Shown here: piece after piece, positions 496 through 60,162 of the stretch
How the letters are laid out: each line of letters starts with the position of its first letter
Position numbering within the stretch: position 1 is the stretch's first letter
From: Candidatus Rhodoluna planktonica
GTDB lineage: Bacteria > Actinomycetota > Actinomycetes > Actinomycetales > Microbacteriaceae
Assembly (NCBI RefSeq): GCF_001854225.1
Contig: NZ_CP015208.1
Span: forward strand, 124,001-188,000
DNA: 64,000 bases
Reading direction: 5' to 3'
Made by a program: the position numbers and the translations under genes
The notes under the pieces: model-generated
The model's input: only the letters and a program-made list of their open reading frames with translations
Told to the model about the DNA's origin: nothing
Databases searched by the model: none

Positions 496-518
496 GCCAT
501 TTAGTCTAGGCTGGCAAG
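496..518. promoter_or_regulatory. Divergent leaderless promoter pair, crcB / lysE
   Basis: The 23 bp between the two start codons hold TAGACT on the minus strand (508 to 503), 7 bases before the crcB ATG, and TAGGCT on the plus strand (507-512), 6 bases before the lysE GTG. Each hexamer sits where a -10 box would place the transcription start on the start codon itself. The two boxes overlap by two bases. Confidence 0.6.
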
Positions 519-1154
519 GTGCCAAGCCTTGCTGACTTCATCACCTTCGTCATCGCGTCGCTGATCATCATTGTGATCCCGGGGCCGAGCGTAGTGTTTT
601 CAGTCGGCCGAACTTTGGCTTTGGGTCGCCCAGCTGGTTTAGCGACGGTCATCGGAAACGCAGTGGGTACTAGTGTCTGGGTTTTGTTTGCCGCCTTTGG
701 CCTTGCCGGGTTGCTGCAACTTTTTCCACCGCTGATTGACATCGTCAAAATCATCGGCGCCCTTTATCTTGCCTACCTCGGAGTTCAAACAATTCGCAGC
801 AGCGGCAATAAACACGCGGAAATCGCAGAGCAAAACCAAACCGCCAAAAGTGTGAAACAGATTTTTCGCGAAGGTTTCACGGTGGGTTTGGCCAACCCGA
901 AAGTTGCTGTTTTCTTTACCGCGGTTTTGCCGCAATTTATCAACCCCGAAGGCAATTTCATCATCCAATTTTTGTTGCTCGGCTTAATTTTCGAAGTGCT
1001 CGGTGTGATCGGTGACTCTACCTACGTAATCGCCGCAGCCTATGTGCGCAACTGGATTTTGACTGTGCCGGCCAGGTTGACCCGCATTGTTAGCGTCGGC
1101 GGAATGATGATTGTCGGCCTGGCACTTTGGCTACTTATTGAAGCGGCGCTCTAA
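519..1154 (+). CDS. LysE/RhtB-family amino-acid exporter
   Basis: This 211-residue protein of about six membrane helices belongs to the LysE/RhtB translocators, which export amino acids or related small metabolites. The N-terminal signature IPGPSVVFSVGRTLALG and the mid-protein GFTVGLANPKVAVFF are characteristic, and the length is typical. The substrate cannot be read from sequence. The GTG at 519 is supported by the TAGGCT box 6 bases upstream; there is no Shine-Dalgarno. It is a single gene, divergent from crcB and convergent with the EamA permease gene. Confidence 0.85.
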   Translation: MPSLADFITFVIASLIIIVIPGPSVVFSVGRTLALGRPAGLATVIGNAVGTSVWVLFAAFGLAGLLQLFPPLIDIVKIIGALYLAYLGVQTIRSSGNKHAEIAEQNQTAKSVKQIFREGFTVGLANPKVAVFFTAVLPQFINPEGNFIIQFLLLGLIFEVLGVIGDSTYVIAAAYVRNWILTVPARLTRIVSVGGMMIVGLALWLLIEAAL

Positions 1155-1185
1155 CCGGCGAGCTAACTTCGCCCGCGGTTGGGCA

Positions 1186-2097
1186 CTAAGCCACAGCAAG
1201 CAGGGTACTGGCCACTAGAGTCAGCGCAATTCCAACCTGTTGAATACGAGCGACGTGCTCTTTGAGAATAATTCGGGCTAGCAAAATTGTGCCGAGCGGA
1301 TAGAGCGCGGTGAGCACCCCAACCACGGTCAGGCTGCCGGTGCGCGAGGCCAGGGTAAACAAAATGTTGGCTGCCGCATCTAGAAAACCAGCCATGGCCA
1401 CGGTTAGCCAAATCTTGACATCCAGTTTGGATGGGGTGGAGGCGCTCGCCGAATTAGAGCTTTGGTCAGAATAAAAAGCCTCAGCAACCAAGGATCGCTT
1501 TCTGAAGAACACCACGGTTGCAATTATTGTCAGCCCAATAGCCGCTGTCGCACGCATCAAAATGATTGGGCCGATACCCGAATCGTGCGGTGACTGCGCC
1601 AGCGAAGAAACCGCTAGGCCGATTGCCGAGCCAGCCAGAATCGCTAGCAGCAAAGCTTTCAACTTTGGTTTTTCGACGTGCTCGCCCGGGATGAAACCAA
1701 CCAGAACAACCGCCAGCAGAGCTATGGCGATCGCCAACCAACCGAGCGCGTTAAAGTTTTCGCCTAAAAAACCAACGCCAATCAGCGCTGGCACAATCGC
1801 CGAAACCAGTGCTCCAAGTGGCGAGACAATGGATATTGGGCCGATTGCCAAAGACGCATACAGGGCCAACAGTGCAACCACCGAAAAAAGGCCAGCGGTA
1901 AAACCCCAAAAGAAGGTGTCCGCACTGAAACTGGCGCCCATAAAAGGTGACAGCAACAGCAGCAACATCAATCCTGAAAACGATGCAGCTGCGGTGACGA
2001 CAACAACTTTTATCCGTCTCGATGCTATGGCAGCAAAGAAATCGGCGGCACCGTACGAAACTGCCGTCAGCAGCCCAAGCAGCACGGTCAAGTTCAT
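1186..2097 (-). CDS. EamA-family (DMT) transporter
   Basis: A 303-residue integral membrane protein with about ten predicted helices in two repeats of five, the layout of EamA/RhaT drug-metabolite transporters. The glycine/alanine-rich N-terminal helix (GLLTAVSYGAADFF) and the C-terminal repeat ending in VGIALTLVASTLLAVA fit the family. Residues of roughly 205-230 form a Ser/Asn-rich cytoplasmic linker between the repeats. The substrate is unknown; members export metabolites or amino acids. The ATG at 2097 has a weak purine-rich AGGGG about 8 bases upstream. It ends 31 bases from the convergent lysE-type gene. Confidence 0.82.
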   Translation of the reverse strand: MNLTVLLGLLTAVSYGAADFFAAIASRRIKVVVVTAAASFSGLMLLLLLSPFMGASFSADTFFWGFTAGLFSVVALLALYASLAIGPISIVSPLGALVSAIVPALIGVGFLGENFNALGWLAIAIALLAVVLVGFIPGEHVEKPKLKALLLAILAGSAIGLAVSSLAQSPHDSGIGPIILMRATAAIGLTIIATVVFFRKRSLVAEAFYSDQSSNSASASTPSKLDVKIWLTVAMAGFLDAAANILFTLASRTGSLTVVGVLTALYPLGTILLARIILKEHVARIQQVGIALTLVASTLLAVA

Positions 2098-2128
2098 CGC
2101 TGGCCCCTAATCAAAATTGAGATTTCGA

Positions 2129-57886: not shown

Positions 57887-58921
57887 ATGACCAAGGCTCT
57901 AAGTGAATTAACCTCGATGCGCGTCGGTGGCGCGCCTGCTGAGATTTTTGAGGCAGTTACCCGCGACGATCTAATCGAACATGCTCTTGAGGTTTGGCGC
58001 AGTGGCGATGATTGGCTGTTGCTCGGCGGCGGCACAAACATGGTTGTCGCCGATGATGTTTCGCAACTGCGAGTCATCAAAGTGGCCACCAGAGGAATTG
58101 AAGTTCAGCCCCCAAAAAACGGCAAGGTTTTGGTTAGGGTTCAGGCTGGTGAAAACTGGGATGACTTTGTAGCTCACACGGTTGAGCAACGACTAGCCGG
58201 AATTGAGGCCATGGCCGGCATTCCGGGAACGGTTGGCGCCGGTCCGGTTCAGAACATTGGCGCCTACGGTCAAGAGTTGAGCGACGTTTTGGTTCGAGTC
58301 GAGTTTCTCGATTTTGCAACCCATGAGGTTGCGGTGCTCGACGCCAAAGACTTGGCTTTCGGCTACCGCGATTCAGCCATCAAACGCGGACGTCCCGGTG
58401 TGATCACCTGGGTCGAGCTCGAACTGCAAGACCTTGATGGTCTAAGCCGCCCGCTTTACTCAACCCAAATTGCTGCCGACTTGGGTGTTGGCATGGGTGA
58501 CCAAGTCGAACTAGCCGAGGTGCGCAATTCAGTTTTGAAACTTCGAGCTCAAAAGGGAATGGTGCTTGACGCCGCAGACCCAGACAGCGTTAGCTGCGGT
58601 TCTTTTTTCACTAATCCGATTGTTTCCGATCGCTTTGCCCGCACGTTGCCAAGCGAGGCACCTCGCTGGGAAAACGAAGATGATGACGGGCTGACCGTAA
58701 AGCTTTCCGCAGCCTGGTTGATTGAAAACGCCGGTATCGGTAAGGGCTTTTCTTTGGCCGGCTCGAAAGCCGCGGTTTCAAACAAGCATGCTTTGGCATT
58801 GACCAATCGCGGGGGAGCATCAGCCGCAGAAATTGTTGAACTGGCGCGATTTATTCAGGAACGCGTAGCCAACAAATTCGGTATCACTCTGGTGCCTGAG
58901 CCCAACCTAATTGGGTTCTAG
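57887..58921 (+). CDS. murB: UDP-N-acetylenolpyruvoylglucosamine reductase
   Basis: A 344-residue FAD enzyme that makes UDP-MurNAc for peptidoglycan. It shows SELTSMRVGGAP, WLLLGGGTNMVVADD (FAD), GIEAMAGIPGTVGAGPVQNIGAYGQE, the catalytic serine region SCGSFFTNP and AAWLIENAGIGKGF. The ATG immediately follows the HadB-like stop with no gap. Confidence 0.95.
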   Translation: MTKALSELTSMRVGGAPAEIFEAVTRDDLIEHALEVWRSGDDWLLLGGGTNMVVADDVSQLRVIKVATRGIEVQPPKNGKVLVRVQAGENWDDFVAHTVEQRLAGIEAMAGIPGTVGAGPVQNIGAYGQELSDVLVRVEFLDFATHEVAVLDAKDLAFGYRDSAIKRGRPGVITWVELELQDLDGLSRPLYSTQIAADLGVGMGDQVELAEVRNSVLKLRAQKGMVLDAADPDSVSCGSFFTNPIVSDRFARTLPSEAPRWENEDDDGLTVKLSAAWLIENAGIGKGFSLAGSKAAVSNKHALALTNRGGASAAEIVELARFIQERVANKFGITLVPEPNLIGF

Positions 58922-58949
58922 AAAACCTCGAATCAAACCCGATTTGGGT

Positions 58950-60149
58950 TTAGCCAAAAAGTTTTTGCAGACGCTGGATACCTTCAACCAGCGGCGCATC
59001 GCCAAGGGCATAGCTGAGGCGAACGTAACCGGATGGGCCGAAGGCTTCACCAGGCACAAGAGCAACTTCGGCAGCATCGAGAATGTAGTCGCAAAGTTCG
59101 AGCGAGGTCTTGATCATTTTTCCGCCCCACTCTTTGCCCAACAGGCCGCGAACGTCTGAGTAAACGTAGAACGCGCCCTGTGGCATCGGTGCAACCCAAT
59201 TTTCGATTTTGTTGAGTTCGGCAACCGCCAGTCCGCGACGACGCTCGAAGGCATTGCGCATCGCCAGCACTTCATCCTGCGGCCCGGTTAGAGCCGCAAT
59301 CGCTGCACGCTGCGAGATGTTCGAGACGTTGGATGAAAGATGCGACTGCAGGTTACCTGCGGCTTTCATTGCGTCAAGTGGGCCGGCCATCCAGCCTAAA
59401 CGCCAACCGGTCATGGCGTAGCTTTTGGCAACACCGTTGACCATGATGGTTCGGTCGATGAGTTCTGGTACCGCTTCGGTGATTGAAACCGCGCGTCCGC
59501 CGTCGTAAACCAGGTTCTGGTAAATCTCGTCGGTGATCACCCACATGCCATTTTCGTAAGCCCAGCGACCAATTGCTTCGGTTTGTTCACGGGTGTAAAC
59601 AGAACCGGTTGGGTTTGATGGCGAAACGAAAAGCAAAATTTTCGACTTTGTTGTGCGAGCTGCTTCAAGTTGTTCAACCGTCACTAGGTAGTTCTGTTCG
59701 GCGCCGGCAAAAACCTCGACCGGAACACCACCGGCTAGTCGAATTGCCTCAGGGTAGGTTGTCCAGAACGGAGTTGGCATAAGCACTTCGTCACCTGGAT
59801 CAAGCAGCGTGGCAAATGCCTGGTAGACAGCTTGCTTGCCGCCGTTAGTGACTACAACCTGGGCTGCAGAAATTTCGGTTCCAGAATCTTGTTTGGTTTT
59901 CTGGGCGATGGCCTCACGCAAATCTGGCAAACCGATCGCAGGGGTGTAGCGGTGGTTTTTAGGGTCGCGCACAGCGGCAACGGCAGCCTCAACGATGTGG
60001 GCTGGGGTGGCGAAATCTGGTTCGCCGGCCGCGTAAGAAATAACCGGCCTACCTGCAGCCTGAAGTGATTTTGCCTTAGCGTCAACCTTCAAGGTTGCCG
60101 ACTCGGCAATTGAACCAATGCGTTTTGAGATTCTTGGAAAGTCAGTCAC
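58950..60149 (-). CDS. PLP-dependent aminotransferase, aspartate aminotransferase type
   Basis: A 399-residue fold-type I aminotransferase of the AspB/AspC group: [31 protein letters not shown] [29 protein letters not shown] and the PLP-lysine region [17 protein letters not shown]. It probably interconverts aspartate and oxaloacetate. The frame extends to 60212, but the GTG at 60149 is preferred because TAACCT lies 7 bases before it and conserved sequence ([13 protein letters not shown]) begins there. Confidence 0.92.
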
Positions 60150-60162
60150 GGCATCAAGGTTA
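60150..60162 (-). promoter_or_regulatory. Leaderless -10 box of the aminotransferase gene
   Basis: On the minus strand TAACCT (60162 to 60157), 7 bases, then the GTG. Confidence 0.5.

What the first reader, a model, noticed from the sequence alone, without database searches (positions are those of the whole stretch)
496..60162. A widespread leaderless promoter code: TANNNT exactly 6-7 bases before the start codon
At nineteen gene starts a TANNNT hexamer ends 6 or 7 bases before ATG or GTG: crcB, lysE, alcohol dehydrogenase, NlpC/P60, the 203-residue protein, radA, proC, HAD phosphatase, glutaredoxin-like gene, histidine phosphatase, menC, menB, DUF4229, PLDc_N, the MFS gene at 38867, the acidic secreted protein, menG, yajQ and the aminotransferase. 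Most of these lack a Shine-Dalgarno, whereas genes inside operons often have one. TANNNT at one of two fixed positions is expected about once in 32 starts by chance. Leaderless messages are known in actinobacteria; here they appear to dominate operon-first genes, and they can be used to correct start codons.
Basis: partly seen in the sequence, partly recalled or inferred. Interest (0 to 1): 0.72.

Follow-up and report, generated by a model that had tools for sequence, protein, structure and literature searches.

The report
Leaderless promoters touching start codons
In this small-genome bacterium many genes seem to begin their messenger RNA exactly at the start codon, a habit already known in its relatives; what is less familiar is that some neighbouring genes appear to squeeze two signals into the same few bases.

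Summary
All 19 listed starts carry TANNNT ending 6 or 7 bases before ATG/GTG, plus a 20th (17884). In 600 genes called without promoter signals from 704 kb of the genome (49%), 99 carry it, about 11 expected; offsets 5 and 8 are near zero. It recurs in two same-genus genomes and at 54 of 56 orthologous starts. TTG starts are almost absent among these genes (1 of 99 versus 101 of 501), as leaderless translation demands.

Leaderless promoters, long known in Actinobacteria, explain it. "Dominate operon-first genes" is overstated: 62 of 300 strictly, 77 with start tolerance. The missing Shine-Dalgarno is not independent evidence.

Less ordinary: (a) divergent pairs such as menC/menB share one symmetric -10 (TAGTCTA) with start codons 18 bp apart; strict 18- and 23-bp forms are enriched in the genus (37 versus 2 and 22 versus 0 control matches), but not across the phylum. 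(b) At 9-10 nt junctions the upstream stop codon often forms half of the next gene's -10 (13 of 16); weaker in relatives, absent in one (0 of 5).

No 5' end was measured.

The parts
503..508 (-). -10 (TAGACT) of leaderless crcB, ATG at 495, offset 7; overlaps the lysE -10 by 2 bp
   Evidence: no orthologue in the fetched stretches
507..512 (+). -10 (TAGGCT) of leaderless lysE, GTG at 519, offset 6; start codons 24 bp apart
   Evidence: no orthologue in the fetched stretches
3188..3193 (-). -10 (TAGGCT) of alcohol dehydrogenase, ATG 3181, offset 6
   Evidence: no orthologue in the fetched stretches
3656..3661 (+). -10-like TATTTT of NlpC/P60 gene, ATG 3668, offset 6; weakest member
   Evidence: its one fetched orthologue lacks it
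   Evidence: kept in 5 of 5 orthologues
18407..18412 (+). -10 (TACCCT) of 203-aa protein, ATG 18420, offset 7
   Evidence: 4 of 4 orthologues
20433..20438 (-). -10 (TAGTTT) of radA, ATG 20426, offset 6; coding score alone put the start at 20330
   Evidence: 4 of 4 orthologues
20455..20460 (+). -10 (TAGACT) of proC, GTG 20467, offset 6
   Evidence: 4 of 5
24713..24718 (-). -10 (TAAACT) of HAD phosphatase, GTG 24706, offset 6
   Evidence: no orthologue in the fetched stretches
24751..24756 (+). -10 (TAGGCT) of glutaredoxin-like gene, GTG 24763, offset 6; gene not called by my caller, added by hand to the orthologue test
   Evidence: 5 of 5
26974..26979 (+). -10 (TAGACT) of histidine phosphatase, ATG 26987, offset 7
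   Evidence: 5 of 5, offset 6 or 7
32433..32439 (.). shared symmetric -10 TAGTCTA: TAGTCT (+) for menB ATG 32445 and TAGACT (-) for menC GTG 32427; 17-bp intergenic region, start codons 18 bp apart
   Evidence: (5 of 5 for each gene)
35663..35668 (-). -10 (TAGACT) of DUF4229 gene, ATG 35656, offset 6; coding score alone put the start at 35641
   Evidence: 3 of 3
35683..35688 (+). -10 (TAGAGT) of PLDc_N gene, ATG 35696, offset 7; gene not called by my caller, added by hand to the orthologue test
   Evidence: 3 of 3
38874..38879 (-). -10 (TAGTCT) of MFS gene, ATG 38867, offset 6, inside the upstream CDS
   Evidence: no orthologue in the fetched stretches
40239..40244 (+). -10 (TAACCT) of 228-aa protein, GTG 40252, offset 7
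   Evidence: no orthologue in the fetched stretches
40936..40941 (+). -10 (TAAACT) of menG/ubiE, GTG 40948, offset 6; [quoted passage not shown]
   Evidence: orthologues 4 of 4; in two of them (L115, L119) the upstream gene's TAG stop is shown to be the TAG of TAGACT
47978..47983 (-). -10 (TAAACT) of yajQ, ATG 47971, offset 6
   Evidence: 4 of 4
60157..60162 (-). -10 (TAACCT) of aminotransferase, GTG 60149, offset 7 (an in-frame start inside the longest ORF; coding score alone put it at 60179)
   Evidence: 3 of 3

Best explanation
The hexamer is the -10 element of a housekeeping-sigma promoter whose transcription start is the first base of the start codon, so the mRNA is leaderless and the ribosome begins at the 5' AUG/GUG. 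Here the full -10 reads TAGNCT, about half the time followed by T, then mostly G or A, with no visible -35 element at a fixed position. Because element and start codon are locked together, the whole signal fits in 12-13 bp. In this compact genome it is packed further: some divergent genes use one symmetric or two overlapping -10 elements with start codons 18 or 23-24 bp apart, and some downstream genes use the upstream gene's TAG/TAA stop codon as the TA of their own -10. Shown here: position, composition, conservation and packing of the signal. Inferred: the sigma factor, that 5' ends lie at the start codon, that RNA polymerase fires both ways, and that the two directions exclude each other.
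For: Offset spike at 6/7: 99 of 600 genes against about 11 expected; offsets 5 and 8 give 0-2 per class. Repeated in G006 (37 of 333, about 7 expected) and G017 (52 of 368, about 7 expected). Motif TAGNCT plus T/G, pyrimidine at -1. TTG starts 1 of 99 versus 101 of 501 in G000, 1 of 37 versus 62 of 296 in G006, 0 of 52 versus 54 of 316 in G017, and not depleted at decoy offsets 9-40 (32 of 141, 23 of 86, 14 of 89); TTG fails as a leaderless start in mycobacteria (PMC4633059, passages). Orthologues in five same-genus genomes: 54 of 56 keep it within 30 nt and 43 of 56 at the aligned start, against 17 and 4 of 139 for other window genes; no decoy offset exceeds 5 of 56. menB loci: 71 of 80. Start-codon distances of the closest doubly leaderless divergent pairs, 12, 18, 18, 23, 24 bp, resemble the TSS distances 18, 10 and 23 bp of bidirectional promoters (PMC12825309, passages).
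Against: No RNA data. SD absence is forced by the element's own position. 3668 is not supported by its one fetched orthologue; six of the 20 window genes had no orthologue in the fetched stretches. Starts came from a home-made caller that missed or shifted 5 of the 20. Doubly leaderless divergent pairs are not in excess (9 of 79, 7.6 expected; the other four lie 38, 46, 47 and 487 bp apart). The relaxed symmetric pattern TANNNTA is only modestly above control (40 versus 18 in 23 genus genomes, and 11 versus 11 in 13 others, hand count), so the enrichment sits in the strict TAGNCTA form.
Confidence: 0.93

Rival explanations
1. The hexamer is a translation signal (an AU-rich or non-canonical ribosome site on a leadered mRNA), not a promoter.
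For: It sits where a Shine-Dalgarno would sit and replaces it.
Against: TANNNT is the mapped -10 of mycobacterial promoters (PMC3898074, passages); the signal is confined to two neighbouring offsets, and strict forms are symmetric between divergent genes at 18/23 bp, the published spacing of divergent transcription starts. TTG exclusion fits leaderless initiation.
Confidence: 0.04
2. Base composition or upstream stop codons create the pattern by chance.
For: In 13 of 19 internal cases the TA is the upstream stop codon, so part of the internal class is helped by that coincidence.
Against: Decoy offsets, orthologue conservation, and divergent genes, which have no upstream stop. At gap 9-10 the base that completes the hexamer is T in 13 of 16, against 34 of 148 at other gaps of 4-60.
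Confidence: 0.02
3. The gap 9-10 stop-codon effect is a Shine-Dalgarno overlap with TAG rather than a promoter fusion.
For: Overlap of stop codon and Shine-Dalgarno is known for short spacers (PMC2784483, passages). In G017 several 9-10 nt junctions read TAGGA- or TAGGAG-like; T excess there is only 5 of 13 versus 18 of 98 (p 0.10), and 0 of 5 versus 12 of 88 in G006.
Against: In G000 13 of 16 have TAR-N-N-T with C at +2 in 10 of 16, the -10 consensus, and both subsets of the sample agree (6 of 8 in set A, 7 of 8 in set B).
Confidence: 0.25

Closest known systems
TA-led leaderless genes of Actinobacteria (Zheng et al. 2011, PMC3160421; abstract and section 7 read)
   Same: TANNNT-like signal about 10 bp upstream of the start; leaderless genes found in 86 of 89 actinobacterial genomes at around 20%
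   Different: Their high-GC signal has little information in the three middle positions; here, at 52% GC, the middle is informative (TAGNCT)
Leaderless transcriptome of Mycobacterium tuberculosis (Cortes et al. 2013, PMC3898074; passages read)
   Same: TANNNT -10, no conserved -35, 505 leaderless genes of about 1,779 with a primary TSS; closely juxtaposed divergent promoters called common, and one divergent pair (prpD and its regulator) with both mRNAs leaderless
   Different: Experimental there, predicted here; a single -10 shared by two leaderless start codons was not seen in the passages read
Bidirectional promoters from -10 symmetry (Middlemiss 2023 PMC10268837, part 1 of 3 read; Warman 2026 PMC12825309, passages; Warman 2021 not held, recalled)
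   Same: 18-bp geometry as the most common, 23 bp also common, reciprocal -11A/-7T
   Different: Here both start codons sit at the inferred TSSs, so the promoter is almost the entire intergenic region
Stop codon overlapping the next gene's Shine-Dalgarno (PMC2784483, passages read)
   Same: Upstream stop doing double duty at short co-directional spacers
   Different: Here the stop would be half of a promoter -10, not of a ribosome site

Membership tests
Actinobacterial leaderless TANNNT promoters | TANNNT at a fixed 6-7 nt before ATG/GTG above chance | tested here: met
Actinobacterial leaderless TANNNT promoters | only ATG/GTG at the 5' end, TTG excluded | tested here: met
   rule from PMC4633059. 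Two TTG starts remain among the 116 tolerant calls, 1 among the 99 strict
Actinobacterial leaderless TANNNT promoters | no Shine-Dalgarno | tested here: inconclusive
   13 of 116 have a 4-mer (12.0 expected), but decoy genes 4 of 31
Actinobacterial leaderless TANNNT promoters | mapped 5' end at the start codon | not testable with these tools
   needs RNA
Bidirectional (symmetric -10) promoters | reciprocal -10 elements at 18 or 23 bp spacing | tested here: met
   Strict forms in the genus: 37 versus 2 reversed-control matches (36 genomes), 22 versus 0 (40 genomes). Wrong spacings: 0 matches in 36 relatives, 23 of them genus; 0 in 40; one other spacing 5 versus 5 control. Relaxed TANNNTA form 40 versus 18. 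Not enriched across a phylum sample of 396 genomes
Bidirectional (symmetric -10) promoters | transcripts in both directions | not testable with these tools
   needs RNA

The most novel reading that the evidence does not exclude
In this streamlined genus, genome compaction has fused promoter, transcription start and start codon into a unit of about 12 bp and then nested these units: two divergent protein genes share a single 7-bp -10 as nearly their whole intergenic control region, so one mutation hits both and the two genes compete for each polymerase; and stop codons of upstream genes serve as half of the next gene's -10, letting a gene inside an apparent operon be transcribed on its own.
Probability: 0.5. 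Interest if true: 0.6.

Novelty: new variant of a known kind. Interest (0 to 1): 0.42.

Why it matters
Leaderless starts let start codons be corrected and mRNA 5' ends be predicted from DNA alone in streamlined actinobacteria known largely from metagenomes. The menC/menB arrangement is a minimal test bed: if two divergent genes share a single -10, competition between directions becomes directly measurable with protein outputs. The stop-codon junctions question the habit of calling any tightly packed gene operon-internal.

Tried and rejected
A first gene filter on third-position GC printed no gene: its threshold suited high-GC genomes, and this one is about 52% GC. The raw genome pattern TANNNT-N6-ATG is only slightly above its reversed control (251 versus 232); the signal stands out only at called gene starts. 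A secondary bump at offset 27 in divergent genes (9 of 169) was put down, without a formal test, to starts called 7 codons too far downstream. SD depletion as independent evidence was rejected (the SD 4-mers were recalled, the 16S 3' end was not checked). Excess of doubly leaderless divergent pairs was rejected (9 of 79, 7.6 expected). A phylum-wide role for the strict 18-bp unit was rejected: 33 places against 51 reversed-control places in the 395 genomes other than G000 (my hand count). The high-GC comparison genomes (G323, G447, G269, G136) gave only 120-173 genes per 200 kb with my caller and are not used as negatives; G447 (divergent 9 of 70, 1.0 expected) and G136 (4 of 47, 0.3) show the 6/7 spike, G323 and G269 do not (1 of 51, 0 of 51). 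Two of ten 18-bp matches in held stretches outside the 80 menB loci lack a long ORF on one side (L122, L131). Three of the 37 18-bp matches (G008:C35, G020:C69, G034:C50) also match the 23-bp pattern, so the two sets overlap there. Rows dropped before counting: 59 of 659 called genes in G000, 35 of 368 in G006, 36 of 404 in G017, for running off a stretch or having no upstream neighbour in it.
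Full report
What was checked. The window is C1:124001-188000 of a 1,424,506-base single-contig genome; the window is 52.8% GC and the 704-kb sample 52.0%. The nearest named MenB proteins are from Rhodoluna MAGs (best three 88-90% identity), followed by other Microbacteriaceae (which may leave out the window's own or nearest records), so I take it for a Rhodoluna-like actinobacterium; that name is inferred. 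A twentieth, the GNAT gene at 17884, was missed.

Is it chance? I called genes by coding score only, so that no promoter or ribosome signal could choose the start, in the window plus 32 stretches of 20 kb (704 kb; 659 genes called, 600 usable). TANNNT at offsets 6/7 occurs in 44 of 169 divergent starts (5.0 expected from offsets 9-60), 18 of 131 co-directional starts with gaps of 50 nt or more (2.9), 18 of 91 with gaps 15-49 (1.8) and 19 of 209 with gaps under 15 (1.7). Offsets 5 and 8 give 0-2 per class. Operon-first (divergent plus gap 50 or more, a proxy) is 62 of 300 against 19 of 209 internal, p 5e-4; the contrast holds in G006 (24 of 176 versus 3 of 107, p 0.003), is weak in G017 (32 of 195 versus 11 of 118, p 0.09) and not significant in set B of G000 alone (16 of 104 versus 8 of 74, p 0.5). 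Allowing small start errors raises the share of divergent starts to about 30% net of decoys, and of gap-50-or-more starts to about 14%. So the signal is real but does not dominate: at a tolerance of 1.5, 77 of 300 operon-first genes are leaderless-type, 95 have a Shine-Dalgarno 4-mer, 128 neither.

What it is. The 116 predicted leaderless starts (tolerance 1.5) give the consensus TAGNCT, then T (about half) and G or A, with no fixed -35 signal and a pyrimidine before the start codon in 68-77%. TTG starts are nearly absent among strict 6/7 genes: 1 of 99, against 101 of 501 others; G006 1 of 37 against 62 of 296; G017 0 of 52 against 54 of 316. Genes with TANNNT at offsets 9-40 keep TTG (32 of 141, 23 of 86, 14 of 89), so the loss belongs to the 6/7 position. 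In mycobacteria ATG or GTG, but not TTG, at the mRNA 5' end starts leaderless translation (PMC4633059, passages). A purine preference at +1 would act in the same direction; either cause requires transcription to begin at the start codon. Some of the TTG starts in the other group are probably wrong calls of my caller, which would also make true starts look TTG-poor.

Conservation. No other offset exceeds 5 of 56. Six of the 20 genes had no orthologue in these stretches and 3668 had one that lacks the motif. In the 80 menB loci kept, from Microbacteriaceae and other actinobacteria (some records carry other labels), 71 have it at offset 6 or 7 (61 and 10); the next highest offset, 18, has 8 (in L053 and L061 the start lies so close to the locus end that part or all of the range was not examined). 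These loci are related, some nearly identical, so the count is not of independent events.

Shine-Dalgarno. Predicted leaderless starts have SD 4-mers at chance (13 of 116, 12.0 expected); the other classes reach 40-46%. But genes with TANNNT at decoy offsets are equally poor (4 of 31), so the element simply occupies the place.

Packing, divergent genes. menC (GTG 32427, minus) and menB (ATG 32445, plus) are separated by 17 bp holding TAGTCTA, which reads as a -10 on both strands; start codons are 18 bp apart. Published divergent transcription starts at bidirectional promoters lie most often 18 bp apart, with 10 and 23 bp also common (PMC12825309, passages; PMC10268837, part 1 of 3). The closest doubly leaderless pairs in the sample are at 12, 18, 18, 23 and 24 bp; four more are at 38, 46, 47 and 487 bp. 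The pattern CAY-N5-TAGNCTA-N5-RTG occurs 37 times in 36 same-genus genomes (25 genomes have it) against 2 for the reversed control (hand count). In the 23 genus genomes common to the spacing tests it occurs 25 times, and 0 times at spacing N4 or N7; at N8 it is at control level (5 versus 5 in 40 genomes). The relaxed form TANNNTA gives 40 versus 18 in those 23 genomes and 11 versus 11 in 13 genomes of other genera (hand count). The tail-sharing 23-bp form occurs 22 times in 40 genomes (19 have it; G000 does not) against 0, and 0 at a wrong spacing; the window's crcB/lysE pair is the 24-bp version, found 3 times in 40 genomes against 0. More than half of the 37 are one locus, menC/menB, judged by the matched letters, in which the 7-mer is unchanged while the flanks vary. 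Of ten 18-bp matches in stretches held outside the 80 menB loci, most fetched because one search placed a match there, eight have ORFs of 270 aa or more on both sides (six of them menC/menB) and two do not. Five of the 80 menB loci (L025-L028, L063) show the shared form with a minus-strand ORF of 322-339 aa. In a sample of 396 genomes of the phylum the strict unit is not enriched, so this packing looks like a trait of the compact genus. Doubly leaderless divergent pairs are not more frequent than chance pairing (9 of 79, 7.6 expected).

Packing, stop codons. At co-directional gaps of exactly 9-10 nt the upstream stop codon falls where the TA of the -10 must be. In G000 there are 16 such junctions (12 at gap 9, against 4 each at gaps 8 and 10); all 16 stops are TAG or TAA, and the completing T is present in 13 of 16, against 34 of 148 at other gaps of 4-60 (p 6e-6); both subsets agree (set A 6 of 8 versus 19 of 101, set B 7 of 8 versus 15 of 47). 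I found this in the pooled data, so the split is a consistency check, not a blind test. It is weaker elsewhere: stretches around the menB region of relatives 5 of 10 versus 6 of 48 (p 0.015; not independent of each other or of the window), G017 5 of 13 versus 18 of 98 (p 0.10), G006 0 of 5 versus 12 of 88. Part of the 9-10 nt class is probably ordinary Shine-Dalgarno overlap with TAG, a known effect (PMC2784483, passages). In the window the case is menG: stop TAA 40936-40938 is the start of TAAACT, GTG at 40948; G006 and G029 read TAG-ACT at the same junction.

Known or new. Leaderless TANNNT genes at around 20% are established for nearly all Actinobacteria (PMC3160421, abstract and section 7), were mapped in M. 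tuberculosis, where a divergent pair with both mRNAs leaderless is also shown (PMC3898074, passages), and are considered by gene finders (PMC9581028, passages). My searches 'leaderless + bidirectional promoter + divergent', 'leaderless + divergently transcribed + overlapping promoters + Actinobacteria', 'leaderless + Rhodoluna', 'leaderless + Microbacteriaceae + transcription start', 'leaderless + streamlined + freshwater + actinobacteria', and two on leaderless with stop codons listed no paper whose title or abstract opening describes the shared -10 or the stop-codon -10; they cover open-access papers only, and of the papers listed I read no more than stated here. The core finding is therefore ordinary for the phylum; the nested arrangements are the part worth testing.

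Noticed in passing
window 32433-32439: menC and menB share a single symmetric -10 with start codons 18 bp apart, kept in 5 of 5 fetched same-genus relatives with varying flanks.
   Followed up: yes
[quoted passage not shown] a spike of such 9-nt junctions exists in this genome.
   Followed up: partly
window 17871-17884 and 38867-38879: Leaderless-type promoters of the GNAT gene and the MFS gene lie inside the upstream coding sequence, so these tightly packed genes may be transcribed alone.
   Followed up: partly
all predicted leaderless starts in the G000 sample: The -10 reads TAGNCT followed by T (about half) and G/A, more informative than the TANNNT described for high-GC relatives.
   Followed up: partly
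L122:7469 and L131:7072: 18-bp symmetric patterns with a long ORF on one side only (the other side 18 and 3 aa); similar letters suggest one locus in two species; not explained.
   Followed up: no
G136 stretches (L182-L191): A distant genome of the same phylum also shows a TAR stop plus T at 3 of 5 gap 9-10 junctions; too few to judge.
   Followed up: no
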